The notes under the pieces are model-generated. The model did no database searches and was not told where the DNA came from. It worked only from the letters and a program-made list of their open reading frames with translations. Shown in pieces: positions 1,756 to 61,401 of a stretch of DNA of 64,000 nucleotides; the first letter of the stretch is position 1; each line of letters begins with the position of its first letter. Source of the stretch: a virus; the IMG/VR virus record IMGVR_UViG_3300018080_000002, positions 62,001 through 126,000 of that record; one strand, 5' to 3'. A program made the position numbers and the translations under genes.

Positions 1756-1844
1756 TTTTTCTTCAAGTCTTTATTCAATTGATACAATTGCTGAAATGGA
1801 GGATAATGACAAAAAAGAATTTATGTCCAAATTGAGAGATAATA

Positions 1845-2504: not shown

Positions 2505-2534
2505 TGCAATAAAATATAAGAATGGAGGCTTATC

Positions 2535-2696: not shown

Positions 2697-2702
2697 TAAT
2701 AT

Positions 2703-2776
2703 TGCGGTGTGGAGAAGTGGCTATCTCAGGGGTCTCATAATCCCCAGATCGTTCGGTTCGAGTCCGACCACCGCAA
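2703..2776 (+). tRNA. tRNA-Met(CAT) or tRNA-Ile2(CAT)
   Basis: The acceptor TGCGGTG/CACCGCA is perfect. The anticodon arm GGGGT/TCCCC encloses CTCATAA, giving anticodon CAT (2736-2738), with a T-T mismatch at the pair closing the loop. The T1-A72 pair is not the C-A mismatch of initiator tRNA. It is therefore elongator Met or an Ile tRNA that needs lysidine. It stands about 950 bases from the main cluster. Confidence 0.85.
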
Positions 2777-2805
2777 CTAATTCCGTTATTTCAGAATAGT
2801 AAACT

Positions 2806-21880: not shown

Positions 21881-21989
21881 TTATTTGATTTCATTGTGTG
21901 TTATGATTTGTTATTGATAATCAATTGTCTGCTTTTCATTTTTCCGTAATCGAAAATTTGTTGATGAACATATATTAGTAGGAATGGCG

Positions 21990-28720: not shown

Positions 28721-30178
28721 ATGGACGAAATGAGAAAAATGCTTACCGAGCAGCAGAATAAAGCTTCGGAAAGTTATGTTGGTCAGTTACTCGAAAAGTG
28801 GAACCCGCTCCTAAAAGGTGTCAGGTCTGATTACACCAGGGGAACGATGGCTGTTCTTTTTGAGAACCAAGCAAACTATTTAAAAGATTTAACCGAAGAA
28901 ACTCGTACAACCAATGTTGGTGAGTATCTTAAGTATGTATTTCCGATTCTTCGTCGCGTATGGCCGAACCTTATTGCAAACGAAATCGTTTCAGTTCAGC
29001 CCATGACAGCTCCTATTGGCGGTATCTTTTACTTTGAAGTAAAGTATGCCAATACCAAAGGGACCGTGACTGCTGGTGATAATTTCATCCAGAATTTCAA
29101 CCGATATTACAGTTCCGAAACTATCGATAAGGAAGTTATCGGTACGGCTACGGGATCTGGTGCCAGTTTTACCTCCACTCTGGACTATACGCCAATCAGA
29201 AATGGCTCAGTCCACAGTGATGCCTTGTTAACCGTTTGGACAACCGCATCTGGTGTTGATACCCAAGTTGGTGTCGATGACGGATCTGCTGGTGGTCTTA
29301 TCACTGAGTATGCAAGCTCTGGTGTTAGCGGTACGGTCAATTACACGACTGGCGTTATCGAAGTTACTTTCCCAAGTAATCCCGACGCGGATACATCGAT
29401 TTGGGTTAAGTATGACTATGATATGGAATGCAATGAGACTATTCCTCAAGCCAATCTCGATATCGAATTGGTCGAAATTCGAGCCAGAACTCGTAAGATG
29501 AAGGCTCTTTGGTGCTCCGAAGCTGCCGACGATCTTAAAGCGTTTCATGGAATCGATGCTGAAGCGGAATTGGTTGCTGCTCTTGCAGCCGAGATTTCTC
29601 TTGAAATTGACCGTGAGATGATCATGGATCTCTACAATGGCGCGACTGGTGGAACCGAAACTTGGGATTATGCTGGTGCCGCTGCTGGTGTTAGTGAGAT
29701 TGATTGGATCAGAACAATCGTTACGGTCTTAAGCCGACTATCCAACAAAATCTACAAGCAATCGTTACGTGGAGCTGCTAACTTCATCGTTACATCTCCT
29801 GACGTTGCTTCGGTTTTTGAGCAATTGGGTACTCATGGTGATTTCCGATCTATTTTTGCTCCTGCCAATGCAGAGACATTTGTAGCTCCTGAGTCGCCAC
29901 AGACCTTCGGTGTTCAGAAAATTGGTACGCTCCATCAGAAATGGATCGTTTACAAAGATCCATATTTCCCAAGCAACAAAATCCTCCTTGGATACAAAGG
30001 CTCTAGTTTCTTAGATGCTGGCTTTGTTTGGGCACCGTATGTACCGCTACAAATGACTGCTACTTTCTTAGATCCGCAAGATTTCTCATTCAGAAAAGGG
30101 ATGAGAACACGCTATGCTAAGAAAATGGTCCGTAGCGAATTTTACGGAGTTGTTACCGTAAATAATCTGCCTGCTTAA
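28721..30178 (+). CDS. Major capsid protein (T4 gp23-like, HK97 fold)
   Basis: The 485-residue protein follows the protease-scaffold gene. Supporting features are TTNVGEYLKYVFPILRRVWP and the C-terminal YVPLQMTATFLDPQDF with FRKGMRTRYAKK, both typical of gp23-like capsid proteins. An N-terminal propeptide is likely, ending near DLTEE (about 53-58). Residues about 130-220 are an inserted beta domain (GVSGTVNYTTGVIEVTF), matched in the tail sheath protein. Codon use is highly optimised and a strong terminator follows. Confidence 0.88.
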   Translation: MDEMRKMLTEQQNKASESYVGQLLEKWNPLLKGVRSDYTRGTMAVLFENQANYLKDLTEETRTTNVGEYLKYVFPILRRVWPNLIANEIVSVQPMTAPIGGIFYFEVKYANTKGTVTAGDNFIQNFNRYYSSETIDKEVIGTATGSGASFTSTLDYTPIRNGSVHSDALLTVWTTASGVDTQVGVDDGSAGGLITEYASSGVSGTVNYTTGVIEVTFPSNPDADTSIWVKYDYDMECNETIPQANLDIELVEIRARTRKMKALWCSEAADDLKAFHGIDAEAELVAALAAEISLEIDREMIMDLYNGATGGTETWDYAGAAAGVSEIDWIRTIVTVLSRLSNKIYKQSLRGAANFIVTSPDVASVFEQLGTHGDFRSIFAPANAETFVAPESPQTFGVQKIGTLHQKWIVYKDPYFPSNKILLGYKGSSFLDAGFVWAPYVPLQMTATFLDPQDFSFRKGMRTRYAKKMVRSEFYGVVTVNNLPA

Positions 30179-31034: not shown

Positions 31035-31538
31035 ATTTATAAAAATAGAGAGCTGATCAATAAGACAAATGAACAATTATTAGATATTATATTTGAATCT
31101 ATTGTTCCCAAACATAGATATGCTTTTAATGCTGTTAAGTCTTTGCATAAAAAACAGTGGTTCCAAGGAAAACATAAGGATTGGGGTTCAGATGAATCCG
31201 ATTATTTTTTTCCTTTTGATAAATATAAAAATATGGCAGAGGAGTTTTTTTTAGTTTCGATTCCTGTGAAAGATCTGGATATTGTGGATGTTGGTGATAA
31301 AGATAGACTAAATAGATATGTGGAATTGATAAAATCAGGTGTGGATATGGGTCCATCATGGGGTGTCTACGGTAGATTTAGACGGAGCGGAGAGTTTGTG
31401 GAGCCTCATACTAAAGGTAAGATTAGCGTATTAGATGGAAACCATAGGGCTTTAGCATCTAAAAAGGCGGGTAAATCTCATATTATGGTTATAATTCCAG
31501 ATATTTCTTTTAATAAATATGTTGAGGACACACCATGA
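31035..31538 (+). CDS. ParB-like domain protein with putative ATT start and leader
   Basis: No ATG, GTG or TTG exists at the proper start. ATT at 31035 follows AGGAG at six bases and gives MYKNRELINKTNEQLLDIIF, which aligns with the start of the gene at 32618 (MYKARDLIDETNNVVSSVL). This homology fixes the start. The leader ends I-F-E-S, a prohead-protease-type site. The C-terminal half contains ISVLDGNHRALASKKAG, a ParB/sulfiredoxin-like DGNHR motif. It would be 167 residues, and it overlaps the next gene by four bases. Confidence 0.65.
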   Translation: MYKNRELINKTNEQLLDIIFESIVPKHRYAFNAVKSLHKKQWFQGKHKDWGSDESDYFFPFDKYKNMAEEFFLVSIPVKDLDIVDVGDKDRLNRYVELIKSGVDMGPSWGVYGRFRRSGEFVEPHTKGKISVLDGNHRALASKKAGKSHIMVIIPDISFNKYVEDTP

Positions 31539-32608
31539 TTACTACTCATTTGAATGAGTTTTTATTAGTAAATCAAAAGGCTGTTTCTTTGATGGAGATG
31601 GTTTTTTCTGGATATACGAAATACGATAATCTTACGGTATTTTTTTCCAAGCAGAGAAAGCCCTCTATAGCTATTTTGAGAAAAGGCAATAGGTATGATG
31701 TTTTGTTTTTCAAGCAAGGTAGGATGGGTCTAGTCCTTTATAATATTTTGGGTATGGGTAGAGGACAGGGGGTTTCTGACGAGAAAATTTTTGATTTGAT
31801 GTTGGAGAAATCTAAGGAAGTTGGTTTGTTGAAAAAGTTTCATTCCAATTTAACTGGACCAAAACTGATTGATTTATTGATAGTAAAAAGCGGTGTTCAG
31901 ACTGAAGTTTTAAAAGACATTTTTCCAGATATTGATTTTGAGGAAAAGGGTGTTAAGACTCAGATTGGAAAATTCAATATTATAGGCTTATCTAAGAAAA
32001 ACGAAAAGATCGTAGAATCATTGATTGACAAATCGTCCGATCTAATCAGGAAAGCAGGATATGGTCATATACTTTATGGCGATGTGGTTATTGTTACTAG
32101 GGGTTCTATATCCCAGAGAGCTGCGGCTGATTATGGCGAAAAATCAGACAATATCAGGTTGAAATTACCTGTTAAAATATTTGATCATGCTGTCCAGAGT
32201 CTCATTCATGAGTTGGGACATAGGCAATATTATAAATTTAAGACTGACCAAACAGCGGTCCATCGGCGATGGCTCCAGGCTACTAGTAAATATCCCATAT
32301 TGCGAATAGGAGACCGGGTAAAAGAACCTGATTCTGATAGGGAATTTTCGGTTACTGGTATTAAGTCTATTCGATCTGGAAACGTCAAGTACCAAGGATA
32401 TTATATGGATGATCCTGGCAGAAAATTGATTGCTAGTGATCATATAGCTCTTTGGGATAAGCTGACTGGAGAGAGCGACAGGGATGTTTTATCTGTATCA
32501 CGATATGCCATGAGTAATGAGAGAGAGTTTTATGCAGAGGTTTTTGCTCATGGGGTTTTAGGAAATAAAAATGCTTTGCAATGGATCAAAGAGGTGTCAT
32601 CTAAGTAG
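31535..32608 (+). CDS. HELGH zinc metalloprotease with leader-type N-terminus
   Basis: The 357-residue protein carries QSLIHELGHRQYYKF (about residues 222-236), a classical HExxH zinc site, with a downstream EREFYAEVFAHG that could supply a third Glu ligand. The N-terminus (MITTHLNEFLLVNQKAVSLM) is helical like the other leaders. It starts inside the stop of the ParB-like gene. Position between capsid and neck genes suggests a packaged or virion-associated protease. Confidence 0.7.
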   Translation: MITTHLNEFLLVNQKAVSLMEMVFSGYTKYDNLTVFFSKQRKPSIAILRKGNRYDVLFFKQGRMGLVLYNILGMGRGQGVSDEKIFDLMLEKSKEVGLLKKFHSNLTGPKLIDLLIVKSGVQTEVLKDIFPDIDFEEKGVKTQIGKFNIIGLSKKNEKIVESLIDKSSDLIRKAGYGHILYGDVVIVTRGSISQRAAADYGEKSDNIRLKLPVKIFDHAVQSLIHELGHRQYYKFKTDQTAVHRRWLQATSKYPILRIGDRVKEPDSDREFSVTGIKSIRSGNVKYQGYYMDDPGRKLIASDHIALWDKLTGESDRDVLSVSRYAMSNEREFYAEVFAHGVLGNKNALQWIKEVSSK

Positions 32609-33595: not shown

Positions 33596-34366
33596 ATGGA
33601 TAATGCAGAATTAATTCATATCGTCCAGAAAAAGCTTGGGATGCCTCAAGTAAAAGTAGAGATGGATGAATCTCAATGGGATGAGATGGTAGATGAGACT
33701 AAGCGTTGGTTCCTTGGTAAGAAAGGGATTATAGGCGCAAAGTCGATGTATATTGTTCCTAAGAGACCAGTTAAGTTTAGTACGATAGATACCACTCATG
33801 GGGTGGACAGCATCGTAGATGTTATCTTTGGTGTAGATCCTGCGTTAAATGGTCTGTTTTATGATTGCATTTTCGGGGTATTTACCAATGGGTATCCTAT
33901 TGTGGGAGCGTCTGTTTTTAAAACCCATTTCGGTCTATTTTCCTCTAGTCGCTATGCTCAGATGGTTATGGCTTTAGAGGAAAGACATAGGATCTATGGT
34001 TCTGAATATGACTGGTGGATTCTCGAAGGTGAGAATTATGATGGTGATGATAATCTGATCATAGACGGTCGAGATGATGGTACAGGGGTGCTCTGTATCG
34101 TTAAATTTAAGCCAAGGTTAAAGCCTAGAGATCTCAACTTAGAATGGCTCAAATCGAGAGATGAGGAGCTTGTTGTTCGTTGGGCTACAGCAGAGGCTAA
34201 GGAGATTCTTGGTCATATCCGATCTAAGTATCCAAGTTATCAGACACCTGGAGGAGATGTTTCTTTGAATGGGGAGGCGTTGCTTGAGCAGGCTAAATCC
34301 GAAAAGGAAATTTTAAACGTAGAGATATCGGAAAGCCAATTCCCGATGCCTTTTATTACGGGGTGA
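33596..34366 (+). CDS. Neck/head-completion protein candidate
   Basis: The 256-residue protein begins MDNAELIHIVQKKLGMPQVK and DESQWDEMVDETKRWF, the helical start common to phage head-tail connector and neck proteins of myoviruses. Beta-rich sequence follows, ending with FKPRLKPRDLNLEWLK and a helical tail. Position after the capsid and core genes supports a neck role (T4 gp13/gp14 analogue). Confidence 0.6.
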   Translation: MDNAELIHIVQKKLGMPQVKVEMDESQWDEMVDETKRWFLGKKGIIGAKSMYIVPKRPVKFSTIDTTHGVDSIVDVIFGVDPALNGLFYDCIFGVFTNGYPIVGASVFKTHFGLFSSSRYAQMVMALEERHRIYGSEYDWWILEGENYDGDDNLIIDGRDDGTGVLCIVKFKPRLKPRDLNLEWLKSRDEELVVRWATAEAKEILGHIRSKYPSYQTPGGDVSLNGEALLEQAKSEKEILNVEISESQFPMPFITG

Positions 34367-34371
34367 TGATT

Positions 34372-34635
34372 ATGAATTTTGTAGAAAACGATAATAAACT
34401 TGCAACGAAAGTGATGTTTGGACAGACATTGACGGAGGCAAGTAACGAAGAAAAAATAAGCAAACTTGAGGTCAAGTTTAACAAGTTAAGGGAAAAGGCT
34501 GAGGTTCTGAGAGATAGGCAGTTTAAGTTAGAGGATGAGCTTGAAAAGATTGTTAAGGCTGCGGATAAACTTGGAGCTGAAGAATTGTCTGGAGTGCATT
34601 TGGATGGTCTGTCTCTATCAGATTTGATGTCTTGA
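34372..34635 (+). CDS. Small coiled-coil protein with LTE-A site
   Basis: ATG at 34372 lies eight bases after GGGG (ATG at 34366 is possible). The 87-residue protein has an N-terminal segment ending MFGQTLTEASNEE, where LTE-A fits prohead-protease cleavage. The rest is a heptad-like coil (LEVKFNKLREKAEVLRDRQ). It may be an internal or core protein. Confidence 0.55.
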   Translation: MNFVENDNKLATKVMFGQTLTEASNEEKISKLEVKFNKLREKAEVLRDRQFKLEDELEKIVKAADKLGAEELSGVHLDGLSLSDLMS

Positions 34636-37788: not shown

Positions 37789-38142
37789 ATGAGACACGCA
37801 GAAAAAATCAAGACTATTGGTGCTGGACTATTAAGTGAAAGCAATCATGTGTTGAAAAACGATATTGCGGAGACGAATGCGATCTTGGAAAGGGTTGCTC
37901 ATGGTTTAGAGGAAGTGAGGACTGCTGAAGAGGATTTTGAAGAATCTCTTTTTGATGAAATTGTTGAATTTGTAGTTGTGAAATATAAGCAGCAGTATCC
38001 TGACATTACTCCAGATGAACTCGCTATGAAAGCATCTGCTCTGTTCCTTACTCTGAGTAAGGCTAAGTCGGTTGTTAGGAGTGATGCAAAGCGAATGGCT
38101 AAAAAAACGGGATTAGAGAGACAAATAAAAAGAGGTTTGTAA
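37789..38142 (+). CDS. Leader-bearing helical protein, 117 aa
   Basis: MRHAEKIKTIGAGLLSES is a leader-like start with an L-S-E-S site. The remainder is helical with a basic end (RMAKKTGLERQIKRGL). It overlaps the next gene by one base (TAATG). No family is recognised. Confidence 0.55.
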   Translation: MRHAEKIKTIGAGLLSESNHVLKNDIAETNAILERVAHGLEEVRTAEEDFEESLFDEIVEFVVVKYKQQYPDITPDELAMKASALFLTLSKAKSVVRSDAKRMAKKTGLERQIKRGL

Positions 38143-38618
38143 TGCGAGAACAATATTTACAAGAGATGGAAATTATAACTGATTTACTTGAGGGTTCAGG
38201 TGAGTCGGTTGTAGAAAGCGTCAATGATTATTTCTCTGCTGAAGATAAGATGAAGAGTTTGGTAGTGACTTATCTTAAGGCTAGACAATCTCTCAAAGAT
38301 TGGATCGACAAAAACAAGCCGGATGATCCTTTAGCTTTTTTAAGTGATGATCCAGAGCCAAAAGAGGCAAAGTCTTTGAGGTTGAAAAAGGAAAAAGCGG
38401 CAAGTAATGCTGAAAAGTTTTTTACTAAGTTTCTTGCTGCTTATATAGCTGAACCTGAAGTGGGAAGGGCTAATTTCAAATCAGCTATGGATGGATATAT
38501 TGTATCGCCAAAGTCAGTGGAGATTGAGAAAGGCAAAAAGCATGATACGAGGTCAGCTTTGTCTGTTGCTAAAAAGATAGCTCCAAATATTGTAAAGAAT
38601 TATAGACTTTTTGATTAG
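38142..38618 (+). CDS. Leader-bearing helical protein, 158 aa
   Basis: MREQYLQEMEIITDLLEGS belongs to the MRxEYxxEM leader class also found at 38628, 41009 and 41859; L-L-E-G is the candidate cleavage site. The body is helical and Lys-rich. No family is recognised. Confidence 0.55.
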   Translation: MREQYLQEMEIITDLLEGSGESVVESVNDYFSAEDKMKSLVVTYLKARQSLKDWIDKNKPDDPLAFLSDDPEPKEAKSLRLKKEKAASNAEKFFTKFLAAYIAEPEVGRANFKSAMDGYIVSPKSVEIEKGKKHDTRSALSVAKKIAPNIVKNYRLFD

Positions 38619-38627: not shown

Positions 38628-38900
38628 ATGCGTAATCAATATTTGAAAGAGGTATCGGATATTGTCAATTTCATGATGGGTAAATCGGACGATATCTCTG
38701 AGGAGATTGGAGATCCTATCAATGACGATGATGATGCTGAAAAAAGGCTACAGGTTGCTTTGAAGGACATCAAAGATGTTTTGAAGAAAATACCTCATTT
38801 AAAAGATCGCAAATACATCGCTCGTATATTGGGTCAGGTTCAAGTTGATATGGATGATTTGATGAATTATTTTTCTAAAAAGAAAAGATTCAAGGGTTGA
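38628..38900 (+). CDS. Leader-bearing helical protein, 90 aa
   Basis: ATG at 38628 follows GAGGATT. MRNQYLKEVSDIVNFMMGKS is a leader of the MRxEY class. An acidic linker (NDDDDAEKR) and a helical C-terminal part follow. No family is recognised. Confidence 0.55.
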   Translation: MRNQYLKEVSDIVNFMMGKSDDISEEIGDPINDDDDAEKRLQVALKDIKDVLKKIPHLKDRKYIARILGQVQVDMDDLMNYFSKKKRFKG

Positions 38901-41008: not shown

Positions 41009-41848
41009 ATGCGAAAAGAATTTAAAAAAGAAATGGCAAGAATAGAGTCTGTTTTAGGTCGAGATACTGGCGAAAGAGATTCTATTGAGGAATATTCTGA
41101 ACCTTGGATGAATAAAAAAGTTAAGAGTCAAAAGACTGGTCGAATGGTTAAGATCGGATCATTAGAGCCAGCAGAACGAGCAAAATATCGACCAAAATCA
41201 GAGCAAAAACCAGCTCATCATCATGCTGCTGAAGCCTTGAGGAAGTCGGGACATCACAAGTTGGCAGATAAGGTTATGAGAGATCCAAAGTCTCATGCAA
41301 AAATAGCAGATAAAATGGAAGATATAAATAATCATGGTATTGCTGCTATGTTAAGGGCTGATGATGATACTGATGTTGAGGTTTTAGCCAAGGGTGAGCA
41401 CGATCATCATGAGTTTGATATGAGAGGTAAGCCTGAGAAATATGGTCATGAAAGAGATGATGCCTTGAGGGCAAAATATGAAGCTACTAATCCAGATAAG
41501 AGGATGGGTGACGGGGACGAATTTGATAAATGGCAAGCTCCAGGCCATTTGTCTGCTTTGAGATATCTTCATAAAAACAATCTACATCATACTGATACCT
41601 ATAAGCGTTTGGCTGATAAGGTCAATAAGCATAAGGATAAGTATAAGAAACTTCATGACGAGCATCTGAAGGGCTATAAAGACAATCATAAACAAGCCAA
41701 GGCAGAGTTGAAAGAGACTCAGAAAAGATTCAAAGACAAGTATGATAGGAAATATACGATGGGTGATCATAAGAGCTATTTGCATAGTATTAAAAGCACT
41801 CATGACACACAGAAAGATCTTGGTAGGGTTCTTGGTTTAGATAAATAG
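41009..41848 (+). CDS. His/Lys-rich leader-bearing protein
   Basis: MRKEFKKEMARIESVLGRD is an MRxEY-class leader. The 279-residue body is extremely rich in His, Lys and Asp (KPAHHHAAEALRKSGHHK) and almost entirely helical, with a QKTGRMV motif near residue 44 also present in the protein at 57694. High basic charge fits a DNA-associated internal head protein. No family is recognised. Confidence 0.6.
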   Translation: MRKEFKKEMARIESVLGRDTGERDSIEEYSEPWMNKKVKSQKTGRMVKIGSLEPAERAKYRPKSEQKPAHHHAAEALRKSGHHKLADKVMRDPKSHAKIADKMEDINNHGIAAMLRADDDTDVEVLAKGEHDHHEFDMRGKPEKYGHERDDALRAKYEATNPDKRMGDGDEFDKWQAPGHLSALRYLHKNNLHHTDTYKRLADKVNKHKDKYKKLHDEHLKGYKDNHKQAKAELKETQKRFKDKYDRKYTMGDHKSYLHSIKSTHDTQKDLGRVLGLDK

Positions 41849-41858: not shown

Positions 41859-42161
41859 ATGAGACAAGAATATATTGATGAGATGAAAAAGATCGAATCT
41901 GTTCTTTCTGAGGTTACTTTTAGTGGCGGTGGTTCTGATGATGCAGCTAAGGCATTTAAGATCCTGGGTACTAGGCCAAAATCCTCGGTAACGTCAATTG
42001 GTATAGTTGCTTATGGTACTGGCTTGAGTGAAATTGATGCGGTTTTGTTGAAAAAGCTTTTAAAGATCAAAACATTTACGGGTGTATCATTCAATCCTCA
42101 ATCTAAATTAGAAATCATGTTTGATTTAGGCGATGATTTTGAGGATGAGGATGAGGAATAG
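41859..42161 (+). CDS. Leader-bearing protein, 100 aa
   Basis: MRQEYIDEMKKIESVLSEV is nearly the same leader as at 41009, with an L-S-E-V site. A Gly/Ser-rich link and a small alpha/beta domain with acidic tail follow. GGAG precedes ATG. No family is recognised. Confidence 0.6.
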   Translation: MRQEYIDEMKKIESVLSEVTFSGGGSDDAAKAFKILGTRPKSSVTSIGIVAYGTGLSEIDAVLLKKLLKIKTFTGVSFNPQSKLEIMFDLGDDFEDEDEE

Positions 42162-42175: not shown

Positions 42176-43057
42176 ATGATTTCATTAGAGAGAAAACTAT
42201 ATGAGGATTCCATTGATGGGTTGGCGTCTGTTTTATGCGAGTCCTCAAGGATCAATGAAGAGTATGATCTTATCCTACAAAAAGAGTCTTTGGGTAAGCC
42301 GAAAGATATTGAAAAGTGGCATAAGGATCTTTTAGCTTGGATGAAAAAATATAAGCTTAAACCAGGCGCACAGCTAAAGATGTCTGGTGGACGTTTGTAT
42401 GATCCTTCCAAGATGGCACCGACCAAAGCTGGTGATGAGTTTGAAAAACTATTAAAGAGAGCCTTAGATCTTAAAATAGGGTCTGAATACAATTTTAGGA
42501 CTGGAGGTAGTATGCAGACCTCTAGTAAGTTGGCTGTCAATATATTTAATAGTGCAGATCTTGTTTTTGGTGAGTATGACGATCTTGAGTATGCTGGTGG
42601 TGATAATACCTATGACTATTGCAAAGTAGAAAATGAGGGTGCTGTTTCTATTATAGACAGGAATTTCGTAGAGAAATTTATTGAGCATTTAGGTGATGAT
42701 ACTGCTTATGTTATCCCGTCAGAAATTAATAATCAGTGGGAAGATTTTGAGGAGCTTGCTCATAAGGCGAATGGGTCTGCTGGTTTGAATCCAAAATTCG
42801 GAGCCATGATTCGTTTTAAGGCTGTTGAGTTATTTGAAGTGCTCAAAAAGTTGGATGGCATAAAGATCTCATTGAACAACATTAAAAAGTCTAAGAATAA
42901 TCCAAAGTATTATTCGACTGTTGAATACAGGATTGAGGTTCCTAAGATTGTTGCATTTTATGTTTCAGTTAAATCTCAGAGATTACGTGATGGATCTTTT
43001 AGAGTGAATGCTGAAGCTGAATTGGATATCAAGCCTGGAAGGTTTCGTTCATTTTAA
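42176..43057 (+). CDS. Leader-bearing protein, 293 aa
   Basis: The start (YEDSIDGLASVLCESSR) carries an L-C-E-S site. A Lys-rich helical segment with PKDIEKWHKDLLAWMKKY, a beta-containing middle and a C-terminal beta region (FYVSVKSQRLRDGSF) follow. AGGAGATAAG precedes ATG. It lies among other leader genes; function unknown. Confidence 0.6.
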   Translation: MISLERKLYEDSIDGLASVLCESSRINEEYDLILQKESLGKPKDIEKWHKDLLAWMKKYKLKPGAQLKMSGGRLYDPSKMAPTKAGDEFEKLLKRALDLKIGSEYNFRTGGSMQTSSKLAVNIFNSADLVFGEYDDLEYAGGDNTYDYCKVENEGAVSIIDRNFVEKFIEHLGDDTAYVIPSEINNQWEDFEELAHKANGSAGLNPKFGAMIRFKAVELFEVLKKLDGIKISLNNIKKSKNNPKYYSTVEYRIEVPKIVAFYVSVKSQRLRDGSFRVNAEAELDIKPGRFRSF

Positions 43058-52800: not shown

Positions 52801-52888
52801 TCTGTGGTCTTTTACCGATTGTAACGGAGATTTAATTATGCTACTCTTTAACCAAGTAAATTTTGTACTTACGTTATGGAGTAGCCGT

Positions 52889-53872: not shown

Positions 53873-54355
53873 ATGGCTAGAGCACAATCAAGTGATTATT
53901 ATCACGTCATGAAATTTCATGTTGTTGATAATCAAGATAGGCTTAATAGGTTAGCTGGTTTTACCAGCGTGACGGTTCCCGAATACACTCTTGAGGCTGT
54001 AGAGTACAAAGAGGGTATTTGGACGTATCGAAGAAAATATCCTGGGGATGTGACTGTTAGTGATATCACTCTGACGAGGGGTGTTGCTCGACAGGCGACC
54101 TATTTCTATGACTGGATAAAAGAGGCCATAGAGGGTAATCCGTACAGGGTTGACTTTGTTATTTATCAGTATCACAGAGAGGATGTTCAAGGCATGACAT
54201 CTTATCTTGATGCAACGCCATCGAGACGGATTGAATGTTTTGAAGCTTTTCCGATCAGGGTTAAGCCTGGAGCGGATTTTGATTCTCAGACTGGCGATGT
54301 CAGTGTTGAGGAGATGGATCTGGCAATTGAGCGGTTTAACATTGTAGCTGAGTAA
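53873..54355 (+). CDS. Tail tube protein (T4 gp19-like), copy 1
   Basis: The 160-residue protein has the tube plan: RLAGFTSVTVPEYTLEAVEY, then EGIWTYRRKYPGDVTVSDIT, FYDWIKEAI and a C-terminal DVSVEEMDLAIERF. These match gp19/Hcp-type tube proteins stacked inside the sheath. AAGGAGGG precedes ATG. A second paralogue follows directly. Confidence 0.82.
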   Translation: MARAQSSDYYHVMKFHVVDNQDRLNRLAGFTSVTVPEYTLEAVEYKEGIWTYRRKYPGDVTVSDITLTRGVARQATYFYDWIKEAIEGNPYRVDFVIYQYHREDVQGMTSYLDATPSRRIECFEAFPIRVKPGADFDSQTGDVSVEEMDLAIERFNIVAE

Positions 54356-54366: not shown

Positions 54367-54915
54367 ATGGCTAGAGATCAGATTACTGACTTTCTGTTGT
54401 CTAATCGGTTTCATTTACTGGATGTATCTTTGACGATACCTCCAGTATTGATTCCTATATGGGGTTTTACGAGTATCAGTGCTCCAGAGATGACTGTTTC
54501 TTATCGAGAGATAAAAGAGGGTAACTACGAGTTTCCCCGAAAGGTTGTCGAGCGAGCGTCTGTATCTGTTCTAACCCTAGAGAACGGAAGTCAGATCTTC
54601 AATTCCGGTTTTTGGGACTGGATTAGTAAGATGCCGGAAGGTAATTACGAGAAAAAAGATTTATTGTTGATGCACCTGACTGGTATTAACCCGACAGATT
54701 CAGATAGTGTTGGGATAGATATTGGTGGTTTTGGTGTGGCTACAGGGGAATTTGCATTTAGGGTTCCAGGTAAGGCATGGCTGTTAAAAAATTGTGCAGC
54801 GGCTAGGTACAAGGCGGGTTCAGACTTTAGTTCTATGGGTGGTTCAGAGGTTAGCATCCAGCAATTAGATTTAGAGTATGAGGAGTTTCTTGAGTTTAAC
54901 GTAGGTATTGGTTGA
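54367..54915 (+). CDS. Tail tube protein paralogue, copy 2
   Basis: The 182-residue protein repeats the same plan as copy 1: WGFTSISAPEMTVSYREI, EGNYEFPRKV, FWDWISKM and EVSIQQLDLEYEEF. It is longer by an insertion of about 20 residues. It could form a distinct ring, such as the tube initiator at the baseplate, as in contractile injection systems with several tube proteins. Confidence 0.75.
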   Translation: MARDQITDFLLSNRFHLLDVSLTIPPVLIPIWGFTSISAPEMTVSYREIKEGNYEFPRKVVERASVSVLTLENGSQIFNSGFWDWISKMPEGNYEKKDLLLMHLTGINPTDSDSVGIDIGGFGVATGEFAFRVPGKAWLLKNCAAARYKAGSDFSSMGGSEVSIQQLDLEYEEFLEFNVGIG

Positions 54916-54923: not shown

Positions 54924-55382
54924 ATGAGAAACGAAAGCGATTTCGCATCTAAGACAAAATCGATGGATAATGTTCTTACATTTGCGAAGGTGATGTCCAA
55001 GAGTTATAAACAATTGACCGAGGAAGAGTTTGATACGGTCGATGAGCAGTTAGAAAAAGTCAAGATAGCATTCGAGTCGGAGCTGTCTTTATTCATATTT
55101 GAGCTATTAAAAGATTATTCGCATAAGTTCAATTGGAGCTTTGCGTCTCCGAATAGCGAGTTATTTGGTCAAAGCTGGCAGTCTCTACAGGATAGATATC
55201 AGCTCATGGGTGATGCTGATAAAATCGATCTGTATAAAAAGATCGGCATGTATATGATCAAAGTATTTTTAGAGTTGTTTCCGAATGCAGGAGAGCAGGC
55301 AGCGGTAGAGATGGCTATGGTCTTTAAGGATCTTATGGTCGAAAGGCTGAGGGAAAAATCTGTTCAAGCAAGGAAAGTATAA
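54924..55382 (+). CDS. Helical protein after the tail tubes
   Basis: ATG at 54924 follows GAGGTG. The 152-residue protein is helical, with QLTEEEFDTVDEQLEKVKIA and a C-terminal ELFPNAGEQAAVEMAMVF. Its first codons contain one copy of the CGAAAGCGATTTCG motif (54932). It overlaps the first LKKLN gene by one base. A tail assembly role is inferred from position. Confidence 0.55.
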   Translation: MRNESDFASKTKSMDNVLTFAKVMSKSYKQLTEEEFDTVDEQLEKVKIAFESELSLFIFELLKDYSHKFNWSFASPNSELFGQSWQSLQDRYQLMGDADKIDLYKKIGMYMIKVFLELFPNAGEQAAVEMAMVFKDLMVERLREKSVQARKV

Positions 55383-55651
55383 TGAATCTTAAAAAACTAA
55401 ATCGAACCCTCGAAGATATTGAGATGATTTTGAATGAGAATGCGTATATGACTAAGGTTCATGATGAATATGTAAAATTAAATAAGAAGATTCATGAGCA
55501 TCTTATTAGGCAAGGCAAATTAGACCGTCAGTTGGACAAGATCAAGAAATTAGCAAAAAAATATGGGATATTTGAGTTATACATAAATGGTCAGACAATA
55601 CAGATTCAAGAGATAAAAATAGAGGATATTTTTAAGAATATGGGGCATTAG
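55382..55651 (+). CDS. LKKLN-leader protein 1, 89 aa
   Basis: MNLKKLNRTLEDIEMILNEN is the first of eight closely similar leaders in this cluster, with the L-N-E-N site. The short body is a helical, Lys-rich domain with an IYxINGQTIQIQEIKI-like beta hairpin also present in the next gene. The first 35 bases are almost identical to those at 55930. Internal head protein is the inferred role. Confidence 0.65.
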   Translation: MNLKKLNRTLEDIEMILNENAYMTKVHDEYVKLNKKIHEHLIRQGKLDRQLDKIKKLAKKYGIFELYINGQTIQIQEIKIEDIFKNMGH

Positions 55652-55655
55652 TGAT

Positions 55656-55919
55656 ATGAATCTCAAAAAGCTTAATGAACAGATGGAAGAGAGCATTTCG
55701 ATATTAGAGGATAAGACCGAGGAGATGAAAAAAAAGTTGGCTGTTAGGTACGGCAAACTTCAGATGAAGGTCAATAGACTTACTGATATGGAATGGAAAT
55801 GTGGCGAGGAATTGGAAAAGATAAAGAAAATAGCTGAAAGATATAAGATAAGTGAGATTGAAGTTGATGGAGGGACTATTGATTTATCTGATGTTTATCT
55901 AGGTGATATGAAAGCTTAA
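55656..55919 (+). CDS. LKKLN-leader protein 2, 87 aa
   Basis: MNLKKLNEQMEESISILEDK has I-L-E-D at the leader end. The body resembles that of protein 1 (KIKKIAERYKISEIEVDGG versus KIKKLAKKYGIFELYINGQ), so these two are full-length paralogues. No catalytic motif is seen. Confidence 0.65.
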   Translation: MNLKKLNEQMEESISILEDKTEEMKKKLAVRYGKLQMKVNRLTDMEWKCGEELEKIKKIAERYKISEIEVDGGTIDLSDVYLGDMKA

Positions 55920-55929
55920 GGTGGTAACA

Positions 55930-56661
55930 ATGGATCTCAAAAAACTAAATCGAACCCTCGAAGAGAGCATTCGGATTTTAGAGGAAGATAAGGTTCATAC
56001 CATAATGTTAGAGGCTAAGTCTAAGGTGAATGAGTCGATTATACCGAATATCCAGAAATGGGTTGATGCTGAACCAAGAAATACCATTGGTGATATCTCG
56101 TTTGAGATGGTCGAGGGTCATATTATTATCCCTAAAGATATCGTTACTCAGGAAGTGGTTGATCGGTATACGTATGAAGATAAGTGGGAAGTTGGTGAAG
56201 AGATCAGAGAATGGTTTTGGATGAGCTATGAGGAAAAGGGTAGTAAAGATATCCCTAAAGGTCACTGGGTTGCTTTAATGTTTGATGCTAGTATTATGGG
56301 AAAACCAGCGAAAGATATCAAGACTGCTTTGAATAATTTTATCAAAGAGGAGCGGGATTGGTTCAAGAGTATAGGTGTTAAAGTAAAAACAAAGGTTAAG
56401 CTCACAAAAGCAACTGGTTCAGAGGCAGAACATACAAATGATAGTATTGGTTGGGAATATTTATACACGGAATTTGATTTGACTGATAGTCATATGAGCC
56501 TTTTAGGCAAGATAAAAGATTCTGACGAGTCTTATAAGCCGGATAGCTATGATACGAAGTATTATATCCCCAAGATGGAAAAAAATGGCTTAGTGGTTTC
56601 TCAAGGTGGTGGTTATGTGATTACACCGAAAGGCGAAAAACTTTTGGCTAAGGGTTGGTAA
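55930..56661 (+). CDS. LKKLN-leader protein 3, 243 aa, winged-helix-like end
   Basis: ATG at 55930 follows AGGTGG. MDLKKLNRTLEESIRILEED is followed by a mixed domain (GHWVALMFDASIMG), then a C-terminal winged-helix-like segment: SHMSLLGKIKDS, KYYIPKMEKNGLVVSQGGG and YVITPKGEKLLAKG. A DNA-binding payload is plausible. The stop overlaps the next ATG (TAATG). Confidence 0.65.
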   Translation: MDLKKLNRTLEESIRILEEDKVHTIMLEAKSKVNESIIPNIQKWVDAEPRNTIGDISFEMVEGHIIIPKDIVTQEVVDRYTYEDKWEVGEEIREWFWMSYEEKGSKDIPKGHWVALMFDASIMGKPAKDIKTALNNFIKEERDWFKSIGVKVKTKVKLTKATGSEAEHTNDSIGWEYLYTEFDLTDSHMSLLGKIKDSDESYKPDSYDTKYYIPKMEKNGLVVSQGGGYVITPKGEKLLAKGW

Positions 56662-57047
56662 TGGATCTCAAAAAACTCAACAAAGTTCTCAGAGAAAGTA
56701 TTTCTATTTTACGAACAGAGTCCGATAAGTTTCGAGATCTTCCGATATATGGTGATGCGATTCCAGCGGGAAGCACCTTAATTAAAAAGAAAAGGGCTAA
56801 AAAGGATGCCATTTTTAAGCCTGTATTAATTAAGCAAGATGCTTATAGGACAAATAAAACCATATGGGTAAGAGCTATGGGTGTGTATGAAGGCGGGAAG
56901 GTTGTCAGGAGTTTTGAATATACCAGGAGTGGTAGAGTACAACTGTCGCTATGGTTAAAATACACAGACGACCCTGTGGTTGAAGATAAAATAACAAAAT
57001 ACAGGAAAGGGACTATTAACGATTTGCCAGCATTGATTGTTCGATGA
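56661..57047 (+). CDS. LKKLN-leader protein 4, 128 aa
   Basis: MDLKKLNKVLRESISILRTES is the leader. The body is basic and beta-rich with KKRAKKDAIFKPVLIKQDAY and ends in IVR. It begins on the stop codon of protein 3. No family is recognised. Confidence 0.62.
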   Translation: MDLKKLNKVLRESISILRTESDKFRDLPIYGDAIPAGSTLIKKKRAKKDAIFKPVLIKQDAYRTNKTIWVRAMGVYEGGKVVRSFEYTRSGRVQLSLWLKYTDDPVVEDKITKYRKGTINDLPALIVR

Positions 57048-57060
57048 CATGGGGGTAACG

Positions 57061-57405
57061 ATGAATCTTAAAAAATTAAACCAAGCTCTAGGCGAGAGTA
57101 TTAAGATATTGGAAGGAAAATCGGATAAATATTTAGCTATTAAACGTGGTTCAGGTACAAATAGATACTATTTAACTACTGCAAAAAAATATCGTGGTCG
57201 TTGGATGATTGGTGGTGATGTTGATACAACTAATGTAACTATTCTCAAAAAGGATCAAACGGACGATCGATGGAAAGCTTATACCCTTAAAGGTAATCGT
57301 ATGGTTTTTTCTGATTATGTGGATGAGGATGATTTAAGGAAATATGAGAAAGGTCTGGATGATAAAGATTTGGAAGATGTTGGTTTGAAGGACTTGTATA
57401 AGTGA
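57061..57405 (+). CDS. LKKLN-leader protein 5, 114 aa
   Basis: ATG at 57061 follows GGGGG. MNLKKLNQALGESIKILEGK ends with I-L-E-G, an ideal cleavage site. A small beta domain (RYYLTTAKKYRGRWMIGGD) and an acidic tail follow. No family is recognised. Confidence 0.65.
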   Translation: MNLKKLNQALGESIKILEGKSDKYLAIKRGSGTNRYYLTTAKKYRGRWMIGGDVDTTNVTILKKDQTDDRWKAYTLKGNRMVFSDYVDEDDLRKYEKGLDDKDLEDVGLKDLYK

Positions 57406-57423
57406 AAAAATATGGGAAAAGAT

Positions 57424-57684
57424 ATGGACAATAAGACAATCAATGAAACTGTATCTAAGGTACTTTTTAAGGATAAACCCCTTAATGAGTCTTTTCATAT
57501 GAAAGACAGTGTTCTGGATGGTTTTACGTTTGAGGATTTGATTACGACCATTCAGACTAGCGAAGCAAAAATTGATGAAAAAACTGTTCTTAGGATTCTT
57601 GAAAAGGTCATCAAGCTTGATGTTGCTGGTGCTAGGTCTGTTGTTAAAAAGGAAATGAAGAATATTTTAGATGCTTTGCAATAG
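57424..57684 (+). CDS. Divergent leader protein, 86 aa
   Basis: ATG at 57424 follows GGGAAAAG. MDNKTINETVSKVLFKDKPL followed by N-E-S carries an L-N-E-S site. The remaining 60 residues are helical (FEDLITTIQTSEAKIDEK). It sits between LKKLN-type genes. No family is recognised. Confidence 0.55.
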   Translation: MDNKTINETVSKVLFKDKPLNESFHMKDSVLDGFTFEDLITTIQTSEAKIDEKTVLRILEKVIKLDVAGARSVVKKEMKNILDALQ

Positions 57685-57693
57685 AGGTATGTT

Positions 57694-58272
57694 ATGAATC
57701 TCAAAAAACTGAATGAAACCTTGGAAGAAAGTATAGAGATACTGTCTGATAATAAGGTTAGAAATCCAAAGACAGGCAGGATGGTGGGTCAGAGATATCT
57801 CAGGAAAGTGATTGCTAAAGAGCATGAGACGATTGGTAATCTTGGTTTTGAGAAACTGGAGACGTTCGTAAAGCATAAAAAGAAAAGAATGAAAAAGATA
57901 AGTGAGGCTGAGGACTTTCGTACTTTGAAGCGTGGAAAAGCAGAGAAATTAATGCGAACTATTCTTGACAAACACACGAAAGGTGTTTTTAAGGATGAAC
58001 ATTGGGCACCTTGGCACAAGATCTTGGATGATTTCGTTGATCATAAGGTTGATTATACGATCGATAAGACTGAGTATTACAAACATCCGAGTACCAAGGA
58101 TGAGATGCCTGATGGTAAGAGGTGGATGCTTACTGTTTATCATGGTGAAAAAGGCGGCTGGAAAGTTAATATAACAGCCTCATTTGGTCCATCTAAGCCG
58201 GGTGATACGGATAAGTACGACATGATTTATACGATAAATTGGTTAGGACGTTTAAGAAAGCCGAAAGATTAG
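57694..58272 (+). CDS. LKKLN-leader protein 6, 192 aa
   Basis: MNLKKLNETLEESIEILSDN is followed by NPKTGRMVGQRYL, a motif shared with the His-rich protein at 41009, then a basic helical domain and a C-terminal beta domain (WMLTVYHGEKGGWKVNITA). This leader has no Glu at the usual site. AGAGGT precedes ATG. Confidence 0.62.
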   Translation: MNLKKLNETLEESIEILSDNKVRNPKTGRMVGQRYLRKVIAKEHETIGNLGFEKLETFVKHKKKRMKKISEAEDFRTLKRGKAEKLMRTILDKHTKGVFKDEHWAPWHKILDDFVDHKVDYTIDKTEYYKHPSTKDEMPDGKRWMLTVYHGEKGGWKVNITASFGPSKPGDTDKYDMIYTINWLGRLRKPKD

Positions 58273-58281
58273 AGGTGAAGT

Positions 58282-58620
58282 ATGAATCTTAAAAAATTGA
58301 ATGAACAGCTTGAACGGAGTATTTCTCTCTTGGAGAATAAGGATTCTGTTGATGGAGAATATCTTGTCAAAGTAGAGAGACAACCGATTTATAGTGATTC
58401 AGCTAAACACGCAACGTATAAAGTGTCGCAGAAAAAACTAAAGGTTTCTGATGGTAGTGTTTTCTTAAATGGAAAATCATTTAGGTTGAGTTCGCCTTTT
58501 GATTGGTTGCAAAAGGCGTTAGAAAAAGGTTTTGATTCTTTGAAAGCTGATGAGCATATCGTTTTTACGACACAAAAATTAAAGTATGAGCTGGTCGATA
58601 TAATAAAGAAAATACGTTAG
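58282..58620 (+). CDS. LKKLN-leader protein 7, 112 aa
   Basis: MNLKKLNEQLERSISLLENK ends with L-L-E-N. The short body has Lys-rich beta segments (YKVSQKKLKVSDGSVF). AGAGGTGAAGT precedes ATG, identical to the ribosome site of the next gene. No family is recognised. Confidence 0.62.
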   Translation: MNLKKLNEQLERSISLLENKDSVDGEYLVKVERQPIYSDSAKHATYKVSQKKLKVSDGSVFLNGKSFRLSSPFDWLQKALEKGFDSLKADEHIVFTTQKLKYELVDIIKKIR

Positions 58621-58629
58621 AGGTGAAGT

Positions 58630-59103
58630 ATGGCCGTAAAAGACGAAATTGATATTGCCAATATGATCATGGCAAAACCAAAAATTAGAATGAATGCTGG
58701 AGAGAAACAGCCAGCTCAGTGCATAGGTGGAGCTAGTAAGACTGGTCCTAATAGCGAGATAGCTACAGGTCAGTTAATGGCCGAGGAAGTTAAAATGAGC
58801 GATTTAAGGCCACAAAGGAGAGCTAAACCCTCATTATCCAATGATCGGAAAAACGAGCTTAAAGAGGCAATGAGGAGGTCTCATCTACATAATACGAGAC
58901 AGGAGCCTATCACTGAGGATATGGGTTTTGAGGAATCTGTTGAGAGTTTATTTGAGGCTGTGAATAATATTGAGTTAGGGATCGAGGAAATTGGTTCACA
59001 AACTGGTCGAGTTGGTCGTAAGATGGTTGAGGAGTGGGATATGCTACTCAAGCGTCTGAAAAGGTTTGAGTTGTATTATGATCGAGCAATGTCAAAATTA
59101 TAA
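58630..59103 (+). CDS. Hypothetical protein in the leader cluster, 157 aa
   Basis: The N-terminus differs from the LKKLN type (MAVKDEIDIANMIMAKPK). A Gly/Thr-rich segment, PITEDMGFEESVESLFE and a helical C-terminus follow. It has the same ribosome site sequence as its upstream neighbour. Function unknown. Confidence 0.55.
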   Translation: MAVKDEIDIANMIMAKPKIRMNAGEKQPAQCIGGASKTGPNSEIATGQLMAEEVKMSDLRPQRRAKPSLSNDRKNELKEAMRRSHLHNTRQEPITEDMGFEESVESLFEAVNNIELGIEEIGSQTGRVGRKMVEEWDMLLKRLKRFELYYDRAMSKL

Positions 59104-59115
59104 GGTGATTGTCGT

Positions 59116-59769
59116 ATGATAGAACAGTTGATTGAGCTGGAGGCTGCGAATAGATATCAGCCTTGGGTTGATCCTGGGTTAGATCCTGAATTTGTAAGGA
59201 TGAAAGATGCCGTTCAAGAGCATACCGTGCTTTGTATTTATCGTTTATATACAGCATATCAATTTCTAAAACATGCTTTACGAATGGTTCATGGCAACGT
59301 AGCTGATATTGGTGTTTATAAGGGTGGATCTGTCAGGCTTTTTGGAGAAATGGCGACCAAAGCTGGTCGAAAGACTTATGGCTTTGATACTTTTACTGGA
59401 GAACCGGAAACTGCTCCTTGGATAGATATTCATAAAGAGGGCGATTTTTCTGATGTTAATTTTGAAGATGTTCAAAAATTTGTGAAGAATTTTGATGTTG
59501 AGTTGTTTAAGGGGGTATTTCCTGAGACTGGGGACGTTATTAAAGACGATAGATTTTGTTTTGTTCATATAGATGTTGATTTGTATTTATCATGCCAGGA
59601 TTGTTTAGAGTTTTTTTGTCCGAGAATGTCTGATGGAGCGATTATTTTATTGGATGATTATGGCACCAAGTCATGTCCAGGTATCAAGCTTGCTACGGAT
59701 GAGTTTGTTTTTGACAAAGATAAAAGTTTGATATTTTTGCCGACAGGACAGGCGGTGATTATCTGTTAG
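59116..59769 (+). CDS. TylF/MycF-type O-methyltransferase
   Basis: The 217-residue protein has NVADIGVYKGGSVRLFGEMA (SAM motif I), YGFDTFTGEPE, the metal-site FVHIDVDLYLSCQDCLEFF and ILLDDYGTKSCPG. These match the macrocin O-methyltransferase family, which methylates sugar hydroxyls with magnesium. With the glycosyltransferase and RmlB it suggests a modified glycan. It interrupts the leader cluster. Confidence 0.85.
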   Translation: MIEQLIELEAANRYQPWVDPGLDPEFVRMKDAVQEHTVLCIYRLYTAYQFLKHALRMVHGNVADIGVYKGGSVRLFGEMATKAGRKTYGFDTFTGEPETAPWIDIHKEGDFSDVNFEDVQKFVKNFDVELFKGVFPETGDVIKDDRFCFVHIDVDLYLSCQDCLEFFCPRMSDGAIILLDDYGTKSCPGIKLATDEFVFDKDKSLIFLPTGQAVIIC

Positions 59770-59779
59770 GAGAATAACG

Positions 59780-60148
59780 ATGGATCTACGTAGTCTGAAT
59801 AAAAAGCTGGAGGAATCTATTTCTCTTTTAAATGAGGGAAAGACTGCTGATGGAACAGTCACCATTGAAGGATGGTATGACAAGGACGATAACGAGTGGA
59901 ATCTGGAGATTGAATATACGGTTGCTGACTATGAGTATGGTGCTGATAGAGATAGCAGGCGGGGTATGAGGCGAGTAGACCTTGAGGATTGGAGCGTTTC
60001 TCATGCTGAGTTAGTTTATCCGACCAAAAAAGATCTGGAGCCTGGGGAAAAATTGCCTAAATTCAATGAAAGAAAGCTCTCTCGCAAAGAATTGAAGGAT
60101 CTCGGAGATCAGATTGAGGATTTGGCTAGGGAAGATTATCATGGATAA
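59780..60148 (+). CDS. LKKLN-type leader protein 8, 122 aa
   Basis: MDLRSLNKKLEESISLLNEG is the last leader of the cluster with L-N-E-G. The body is acidic with an IEYTVADYEYG strand and a helical end. AGGAGAAT precedes ATG. It overlaps the next gene by eight bases. Confidence 0.62.
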   Translation: MDLRSLNKKLEESISLLNEGKTADGTVTIEGWYDKDDNEWNLEIEYTVADYEYGADRDSRRGMRRVDLEDWSVSHAELVYPTKKDLEPGEKLPKFNERKLSRKELKDLGDQIEDLAREDYHG

Positions 60149-60410: not shown

Positions 60411-60641
60411 ATGGGTAAACCGATTGTAGGCAAAGTTCGTTTGAATTTGTTTATGCAGGCAAAGTTGTATATCGAATTGTGTCATATCGCGGAGACTGAT
60501 GATCGAAGCATGGCTGACGTTATCAGGGAAGCGTGTAGAGATTACGTGGTTCGATACAAAAGACGTGGAACGCATAAGTATTTTAATCAAGGAGTAAGCG
60601 ATGAGCGAAGTGACGAAAGAGGTAGGGACAACGACAGTTGA
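60411..60641 (+). CDS. Ribbon-helix-helix DNA-binding protein
   Basis: The 76-residue protein has the RHH pattern: a beta strand KVRLNLFM, then helices AKLYIELCHIAETDD and SMADVIREACRDYVV. A charged disordered tail follows. Arc/CopG-type proteins bind DNA as dimers and often repress their own promoter. AAGGG precedes ATG. It overlaps the next gene by 41 bases. Confidence 0.72.
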   Translation: MGKPIVGKVRLNLFMQAKLYIELCHIAETDDRSMADVIREACRDYVVRYKRRGTHKYFNQGVSDERSDERGRDNDS

Positions 60642-61401
60642 TCAGATTGTTTCAGGGGTAAAGAGTGATACTAAATCCAGCCATACCTGTATAGAGCTGC
60701 CGACAGGTTATATCGATCAGGATGGAAATCTTCAAAAAGCGGTGGATATCAGACCGTACACAGGTGAGGAGGAGGATATATTAGCCTCTCAGAAAATGCC
60801 TATGTATCGAAGATTGGGCAAGTTGCTGGAGAATTGTGTAACCAGGATTGGTGATATTGATGATCCGAAGAGATTGAAAAGCATTATTCGTCAGTTAGTT
60901 TTTTCTGACAGATTGTTTTTGATCGTACAAGTAAGGGCTGCAACAAACGGAAATATCTATTCTTTAGATGTAAAATGCCCTGAAGAGGATTGTGGCTTGA
61001 ACAGTATGCAGCATATTGATCTAGCTGATATCAAATGGGTTGGATTGCAAGATCCCATGAAGCGTCAATACTCGTTTAAGCTGCCTGGTAGTGGTGTTGA
61101 TGTGACATGGAACGTTATGGATGGAATAAGAGAGGAGAGGATTCATCAGCATTCCTTGGATCGAGATTTATTATCTGTGGGAATTTTGGCTAGGTTGAAC
61201 GATCTCGATACTCGCCGAGTTACGATGGCGATGGTTAAAAAGATGACGCCTCCACAGAGACGAGCATTAAGGAAAGAGTTTGAAAAGGCTGAAGGGACTT
61301 TAGATGATCAGGTAACGTTTGAGTGTAAGCATTGCGGTCATGAATGGACGGATTCTGTTGATTACGCGCAACCAAGTTTTTTCTTCCCTACGGACGAGTA
61401 G
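60601..61401 (+). CDS. Baseplate hub/tail assembly chaperone (T4 gp26-like)
   Basis: The 266-residue protein fits the T4_baseplate (gp26) family: CIELPTGYI, VDIRPYTGEEEDIL, LVFSDRLFLIVQVRAA, then a CPEEDC segment and a C-terminal CKHCGHEW zinc-type pair. In T4 gp26 and gp51 help assemble the hub around the tape measure. A -1 slippery sequence near the 3' end would extend it into a second frame. It sits shortly upstream of the tape measure gene, where tail chaperones usually lie. Confidence 0.78.
   Translation: MSEVTKEVGTTTVDQIVSGVKSDTKSSHTCIELPTGYIDQDGNLQKAVDIRPYTGEEEDILASQKMPMYRRLGKLLENCVTRIGDIDDPKRLKSIIRQLVFSDRLFLIVQVRAATNGNIYSLDVKCPEEDCGLNSMQHIDLADIKWVGLQDPMKRQYSFKLPGSGVDVTWNVMDGIREERIHQHSLDRDLLSVGILARLNDLDTRRVTMAMVKKMTPPQRRALRKEFEKAEGTLDDQVTFECKHCGHEWTDSVDYAQPSFFFPTDE
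61377..61383 (+). promoter_or_regulatory. -1 programmed frameshift site T TTT TTC
   Basis: In the gp26-like frame the codons read AGT TTT TTC, so the heptamer T_TTT_TTC fits X_XXY_YYZ exactly, 18 bases before the zero-frame stop. The -1 frame is open from here to 61550. Confidence 0.6.

What the first reader, a model, noticed from the sequence alone, without database searches (positions are those of the whole stretch)
55382..60148. A cluster of eight proteins sharing one cleavable-looking N-terminal leader with different bodies
Genes at 55382, 55656, 55930, 56661, 57061, 57694, 58282 and 59780 all begin M-(N/D)-L-(K/R)-x-L-N followed by x-x-L-x-x-S/I-I-x-I/L-L, then diverge. Several leaders end in I/L-x-E followed by a small or polar residue (I-L-E-G, L-N-E-G, L-L-E-N, L-N-E-N). 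Known in T4: internal proteins IPI-III carry a short N-terminal capsid-targeting sequence cut by gp21 at [LI]-x-E. A gp21-like protease is encoded at 27071. Inference: these are packaged internal proteins, ejected with DNA, with swappable payloads. Their place between tail tube and tail chaperone genes is unexpected.
Basis: partly seen in the sequence, partly recalled or inferred. Interest (0 to 1): 0.92.

Follow-up and report, generated by a model that had tools for sequence, protein, structure and literature searches.

The report
Phage cargo proteins sharing packaging leaders
Eight neighbouring genes of an uncultured T4-type phage make mostly unrelated proteins that share one short removable-looking front tag, probably the address label that gets them packed into the phage head and injected into the bacterium, as T4 does with its three injected anti-defence proteins.

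Summary
Eight late genes share a 17-19-residue amphipathic leader, M[ND]L[KR]xLNxxLxESIxIL; similarity stops at residues 17-21, and only two bodies are related. Silent sites are saturated (pS 0.72) while replacements are few (pN 0.27), so selection acts on the peptide. Six of eight leaders end in the [L/I]-x-E gp21 cleavage motif. The genome has an S77 prohead protease with conserved His and Ser, and a gp23 capsid protein whose LTE|E aligns with the T4 cut. [L/I]-x-E at residues 14-25 is enriched across the head/late block (26/53 genes, 10.4 expected) but barely elsewhere (24/137, 17.2 expected). Best reading: T4 Ip-like head cargo, packaged by the leader, trimmed and injected. Packaging, cleavage and payload functions are inferred. 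Leader sequences are not homologous to T4's. New variant of a known kind.

The parts
55382..55651 (+). F1 leader protein, 89 aa; leader MNLKKLNRTLEDIEMILNE|N; coiled-coil-like basic body related to 55656
55656..55919 (+). F1 leader protein, 87 aa; leader MNLKKLNEQMEESISILE|D; body homologous to 55382 and to 34366, which has another leader
55930..56661 (+). F1 leader protein, 243 aa; leader MDLKKLNRTLEESIRILE|E; C-terminal winged-helix match (PF14947, E 1.3e-5, at cut-off; Sso10a-like 3e-5, below cut-off)
56661..57047 (+). F1 leader protein, 128 aa; leader MDLKKLNKVLRESISILRTES, no [L/I]-x-E; basic body (pI 9.9)
57061..57405 (+). F1 leader protein, 114 aa; leader MNLKKLNQALGESIKILE|G
57412..57684 (+). 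90-aa protein inside the cluster without the F1 leader (MGKDMDNKTINETVSKVLFKDKPLNE|S)
   Evidence: not an F1 member by PSSM
57694..58272 (+). F1 leader protein, 192 aa; leader MNLKKLNETLEESIEILSD, Asp at the site; very basic body (net +15)
58282..58620 (+). F1 leader protein, 112 aa; leader MNLKKLNEQLERSISLLE|N
59780..60148 (+). F1 leader protein, 122 aa; leader MDLRSLNKKLEESISLLNE|G; acidic body (pI 4.6)
38142..38618 (+). F2 leader protein, 158 aa; leader MREQYLQEMEIITDLLE|G
38628..38900 (+). F2 leader protein, 90 aa; leader MRNQYLKEVSDIVNFMMG, no Glu site
41009..41848 (+). F2 leader protein, 279 aa; leader MRKEFKKEMARIESVLGRD, no Glu site; basic body
41859..42161 (+). F2 leader protein, 100 aa; leader MRQEYIDEMKKIESVLSE|V
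34366..34635 (+). Body homologous to 55656 under an unrelated leader ending LTE|A; homology starts at the site
54924..55382 (+). 152-aa protein whose homology to L004:18106 starts at LTE in both; possible single leader
31535..32608 (+). 357-aa HELGH metallopeptidase-like protein; homologue in L004 (32% identity) has a different N-terminal leader ending LSE|G
42176..43057 (+). 293-aa protein with single leader ending VLCE|S
27071..28651 (+). gp21-like S77 prohead protease fused to a coiled-coil, scaffold-like C-terminal half; proposed leader-removing enzyme
   Evidence: PF03420 E 2e-15; conserved catalytic motifs
28721..30178 (+). gp23-like major capsid protein; DLTE|E at residue 60 aligns with the T4 cut FLTE|A
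   Evidence: PF07068 E 3e-76; alignment
25664..27046 (+). 460-aa acidic, Asp-rich, scaffold-like core protein with N-terminal LTE|A
   Evidence: function inferred from place and composition
60601..61401 (+). Baseplate-hub protein (phrog_150) that bounds the cluster downstream
53873..54355 (+). gp19-like tail tube protein upstream of the cluster (second tube-like gene at 54367-54915)

Best explanation
The cluster is a hotspot of head-cargo genes, T4 internal-protein-like. Each product carries an amphipathic N-terminal helix that binds the prohead core and so brings the protein into the capsid under assembly (inferred). The gp21-type protease then cuts after [L/I]-x-E at the end of the helix, freeing the body (site and protease shown; cleavage inferred). 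The bodies leave the head with the DNA and act in the new host at once, most likely against restriction or other defences or on host takeover (inferred from T4). Because the leader is separate from the body, bodies are gained, lost and exchanged while the leader is kept. A second leader family and single leaders upstream use the same site logic. Leaders lacking Glu at the site may be packaged without being cut, as a T4 leader with Asp at that place is.
For: Leader unique to these eight genes and under protein-level selection. Six of eight end in [L/I]-x-E (p about 0.002). Excess of [L/I]-x-E at residues 14-25 in the head/late block: 26/53 against 24/137 elsewhere (Fisher p 3e-5), and only in the first residues, not further along the proteins. 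Protease with conserved catalytic motifs. Capsid cut site aligned with T4 and with [L/I/V]-x-E in nine of ten capsid proteins compared; the tenth has LFNE. Homology between proteins with different leaders starts at the [L/I]-x-E in two cases. Independent recurrence: contig G001 carries 20 distinct proteins with leader MKLTESKLRKIIKEEIQKLNE, no detectable similarity between bodies, seven of them between tube and hub and the rest around protease and capsid genes. 73 distinct proteins with that leader in IMG/VR, 57 with [LIV]-x-E at the expected place; 10 of 15 long contigs bearing it also carry S77 and 11 of 15 gp23. T4: Ip1-3 share nothing but the N-terminal leader, are injected, and block restriction enzymes (PMC12373910); leader of 10-19 residues, L/I-X-E cut, Asp variant targeted but not cut (PMC9026906).
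Against: No virion proteomics; the phage is uncultured. Two of eight F1 and two of four F2 leaders lack the Glu. Leaders have no sequence similarity to T4's MKTYQEF. Most other relatives found through the tail tube gene have no shared-leader cluster in the slot. No body has a proven function; only one of the eight has a domain match at a curated cut-off.
Confidence: 0.8

Rival explanations
1. Tail-tube cargo: the leader loads the proteins into the tail tube lumen, as N-terminal signals do for cargo of extracellular contractile injection systems; the genes therefore lie next to the tube gene.
For: Position directly after the tube genes and before the hub gene. Existence of N-terminal loading signals in contractile injection systems is from general knowledge, not tested here.
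Against: The phage tail lumen is normally filled by the tape measure protein. In G001 the same leader also lies on genes around the protease and capsid genes. Site motif and co-occurrence point to gp21. The tail block downstream shows no clear excess of the motif (6/37, 3.4 expected).
Confidence: 0.08
2. Assembly or docking tag without cleavage: the leader binds a common phage protein (scaffold, chaperone or hub) in the infected cell and the proteins act during assembly, not as injected cargo.
For: Four of twelve F1 and F2 leaders lack the Glu. An amphipathic helix is a generic binding element.
Against: The motif is enriched at one place and homology boundaries coincide with it. Bodies are unrelated to each other, which does not suggest a common assembly role.
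Confidence: 0.08
3. Residue of gene duplication or a nucleic-acid element (ribosome-binding or recombination sequence) with no function in the peptide.
For: Two bodies are true paralogues.
Against: Silent sites are saturated while replacements are few; upstream DNA is not shared; similarity stops at the putative cut, not at a domain edge.
Confidence: 0.03

Closest known systems
T4 and T-even internal proteins Ip1, Ip2, Ip3 with their capsid targeting sequence
   Same: Short N-terminal leader shared by otherwise unrelated small, mostly basic proteins; [L/I]-x-E end; gp21-type protease and gp23-type capsid in the same genome; swappable bodies in hotspots.
   Different: Leader sequence unrelated (M[ND]LKKLN versus MKTYQEFIAE) and longer than that of Ip2/Ip3; eight genes plus a second family of four; located in the tube-hub interval, while T4 ip genes lie in two other loci.
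T4 Alt (packaged ADP-ribosyltransferase)
   Same: N-terminal propeptide cut by gp21, injected with DNA.
   Different: No ADP-ribosyltransferase match in the leader proteins of this window; Alt leader is 7 residues (PMC9026906).
phiKZ and SPN3US inner-body or ejection proteins with propeptides
   Same: Many head proteins trimmed after Glu by a diverged prohead protease and ejected (PMC9026906).
   Different: As recalled, cleavage motif and capsid family differ; no family-wide shared leader on unrelated bodies was recalled; not compared here.
Leader family MKLTExKLRxIIKEEIxxLxE of huge and metagenomic T4-type phages
   Same: Same architecture, same tube-hub slot in G001, leader mostly ending L-x-E, gp21 and gp23 present.
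   Different: Different leader sequence; up to 20 proteins seen per phage; not found under these sequences in the paper library.

Membership tests
T4-type internal (head cargo) proteins | One short N-terminal leader shared by proteins with otherwise unrelated bodies | tested here: met
   two of the eight bodies are related
T4-type internal (head cargo) proteins | Leader ends in the gp21 motif [L/I]-x-E | tested here: met
   6 of 8 F1 leaders; 56661 and 57694 are exceptions; F2 has 2 of 4
T4-type internal (head cargo) proteins | gp21-type protease and gp23-type capsid protein in the same genome, capsid cut at the same motif | tested here: met
T4-type internal (head cargo) proteins | Leader sequence homologous to the T4 capsid targeting sequence MKTYQEF | tested here: not met
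   Leaders printed share no motif by eye; so it works like an Ip, descent from the T4 ip genes is not claimed
T4-type internal (head cargo) proteins | Small basic proteins | tested here: inconclusive
   5 of 8 bodies have pI 9.0-9.9, one 8.0, two are acidic
T4-type internal (head cargo) proteins | Present in the mature head, leader removed, injected with DNA | not testable with these tools
   needs virions
T4-type internal (head cargo) proteins | Inhibits a host defence such as a type IV restriction enzyme | not testable with these tools
   host unknown; no known inhibitor domain found
T4 superfamily (gp20, gp21, gp23 head) | Portal_T4, Peptidase_S77 and Gp23 matches over cut-off | tested here: met
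Extracellular contractile injection system cargo | N-terminal signal loads cargo into the tube lumen | not testable with these tools
   only gene position speaks for it

The most novel reading that the evidence does not exclude
Many T4-type phages run a general head-cargo delivery system: each lineage has its own address leader, matched to its own prohead core and all ending in L/I-x-E, and loads up to 20 or more unrelated proteins per virion from fixed slots such as the tube-hub interval. Reading leaders would then reveal whole sets of injected anti-defence and takeover proteins from sequence alone.
Probability: 0.6. Interest if true: 0.88.

Novelty: new variant of a known kind. Interest (0 to 1): 0.75.

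Why it matters
Injected phage proteins are the first to meet host defences, yet few are known because their bodies share no sequence. T4's three Ips were shown to block distinct restriction enzymes. If each T4-type lineage marks its cargo with a readable leader, such proteins can be listed from genomes, and leader, protease and core could be built into protein-delivery particles. The leader differences between lineages also make the question of what the leader binds in the core directly testable.

Tried and rejected
Pattern scans of IMG/VR for F1 found nothing and, looser, one hit that is not the start of any predicted gene; F2 found nothing: both leaders appear private to this lineage. tblastn of short leader consensuses against phage records gave no match and is too insensitive to mean much. 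tblastn of payload 57694 and of 42176 and 43075 against phage records: no match. Structure predictions of 55930 and 57694 without an alignment were poor (mean pLDDT 36 and 44); only a helix at residues 3-19 of 57694 and 3-36 of 55930 is suggested, so no fold search was made. T4 late promoter TATAAATA is not above chance. A regex slip gave 0 rows; corrected. My gene finder is a simple one; it picked inner or outer starts for 55656 and 57061, corrected by hand before the statistics. In L018, ADP-ribosyltransferase-like bodies were suspected by eye but Pfam does not support it. Sec or lipoprotein signal rejected: no hydrophobic core in F1 leaders.

Full report
1. The observation. All eight genes are there, on the + strand, in one tight late operon between two gp19-like tube genes (53873, 54367) and a baseplate-hub gene (60601; phrog_150, E 5e-11). 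Gaps between neighbouring genes are -1 to 13 nt. The leader is M[ND]L[KR]xLNxxLxESIxIL. A PSSM over 3,599 starts of the 157-kb genome gives 40-49 bits for the eight (27-44 left out in turn) and 12.3 for the next start. DNA similarity starts at the ATG; protein similarity ends at residues 17-21. Within the leader, silent sites are near saturation (pS 0.72) while pN is 0.27: old copies held by selection on the peptide. Bodies are unrelated except 55382/55656.

2. The cleavage site. Six of eight leaders have [L/I]-x-E with Glu at 18 or 19; chance about 0.002 at the local Glu frequency. 57694 has Asp there; in T4 IPIII, Asp at that place stops the cut but not the targeting (PMC9026906). 56661 has ILRTES. 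The rule L/I-X-E is that of T4 gp21 (PMC9026906). The protease of this phage is PF03420 (E 2e-15) with the GELDHP and GISSRG motifs of T4-type gp21. The capsid protein is PF07068 (E 3e-76); its DLTE|E lies in the alignment column of the T4 cut FLTE|A, and of ten T4-superfamily capsid proteins nine have [L/I/V]-x-E in that place, the tenth LFNE.

3. Beyond the cluster. Over the head and late block (genome 87.0-122.2 kb, window about 25-60.2 kb) 26 of 53 genes have [L/I]-x-E with Glu at 14-25, against 10.4 +- 2.8 in shuffles (none of 2,000 reached it); elsewhere 24 of 137 against 17.2 (p 0.047); Fisher p 3e-5. Further along the same proteins the excess is gone. A second leader family, MR(x)2[YF](x)2E[MV](x)2I, marks 38142, 38628, 41009 and 41859. 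34366 has a body homologous to 55656 (E 3e-9 for the pair) under another leader, and the alignment begins around ILE|D against LTE|A; 54924 and L004:18106 are homologous from LTE on and not before it. The first pair has coiled-coil-like sequence, so its homology is less sure. A metallopeptidase-like body is at 31535 and, with a different leader, in L004.

4. Elsewhere. The huge phage record LR756508.1 has another leader, MKLTExKLRxIIKEEIxxxLxE, on about fifteen genes on either side of its capsid gene. A pattern for it in IMG/VR gave 75 stretches and 73 distinct proteins, 57 with [LIV]-x-E at 17-27. One contig, G001 (IMGVR_UViG_3300022912_000005), carries 20 distinct proteins with this leader and no detectable similarity between bodies: ten between protease and capsid genes, three after the capsid gene, seven between tail tube and hub. 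So the tube-hub interval holds leader genes in two phages with unrelated leaders. Of 15 long contigs with the leader, 10 carry S77 and 11 gp23; the others may be fragments. No random-contig control was run for this. Most relatives found through the tube gene have two to four genes in the interval and no shared leader. F1 and F2 were not found elsewhere.

5. How it works, most likely. The helix docks the protein in the prohead core; gp21 cuts at [L/I]-x-E; the body goes in with the DNA and acts early against host defence or for takeover. Shown: leader, constraint, site, protease, capsid site, modularity, recurrence. Inferred: docking, cutting, packaging, injection, function. T4's Ip1-3, which share only the leader, are injected and block distinct GmrSD enzymes (PMC12373910), are the model. 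Only one of the eight bodies has a domain match at a curated cut-off: 55930, a C-terminal winged helix.

6. Known or new. The principle is known from T-even phages; review authors propose that the leader lets T4-like phages carry varied proteins (PMC9026906). New here: a distant lineage with unrelated leaders, two leader families in one genome, body-leader exchange with homology bounded at the cut, and a recurrent genomic slot. Hence new variant of a known kind.

Noticed in passing
window 22800-24077: The T4-type portal gene (21984-24932) holds an intein with splicing and LAGLIDADG homing-endonuclease domains, about 426 residues.
   Followed up: partly
window 39026-40087: A TubZ/FtsZ-like tubulin GTPase (PF00091, E 2e-16) followed by an AAA ATPase (40102-40968) sits among the leader-bearing head/late genes.
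   Followed up: no
window 52838-53857: A protein with HTH repeats and a C-terminal phage endonuclease I-like domain lies between tail sheath and tail tube genes; possible free-standing homing endonuclease.
   Followed up: no
window 59116-59769 and 61560-62977: TylF-type and other methyltransferases and a glycosyltransferase-like gene are inserted next to tail genes.
   Followed up: no
window 135-2777: Fourteen tRNA genes in the first 2.8 kb of the window.
   Followed up: no
L004:12350-14582: A second phage carries a third leader type, MF[QR][LF]N[NK]S, on a metallopeptidase-like and a J-domain protein between its two tube genes.
   Followed up: partly
L018:27697-32387: Row of proteins after the capsid gene with ten-residue leaders such as MRLKEILLE|N and MKLKGILKE|A, of unknown function.
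   Followed up: partly
L046:3819-4236 (also L047, L048): Two adjacent genes share a leader MNR(x)2N(x)LLE, a small case in another relative.
   Followed up: no
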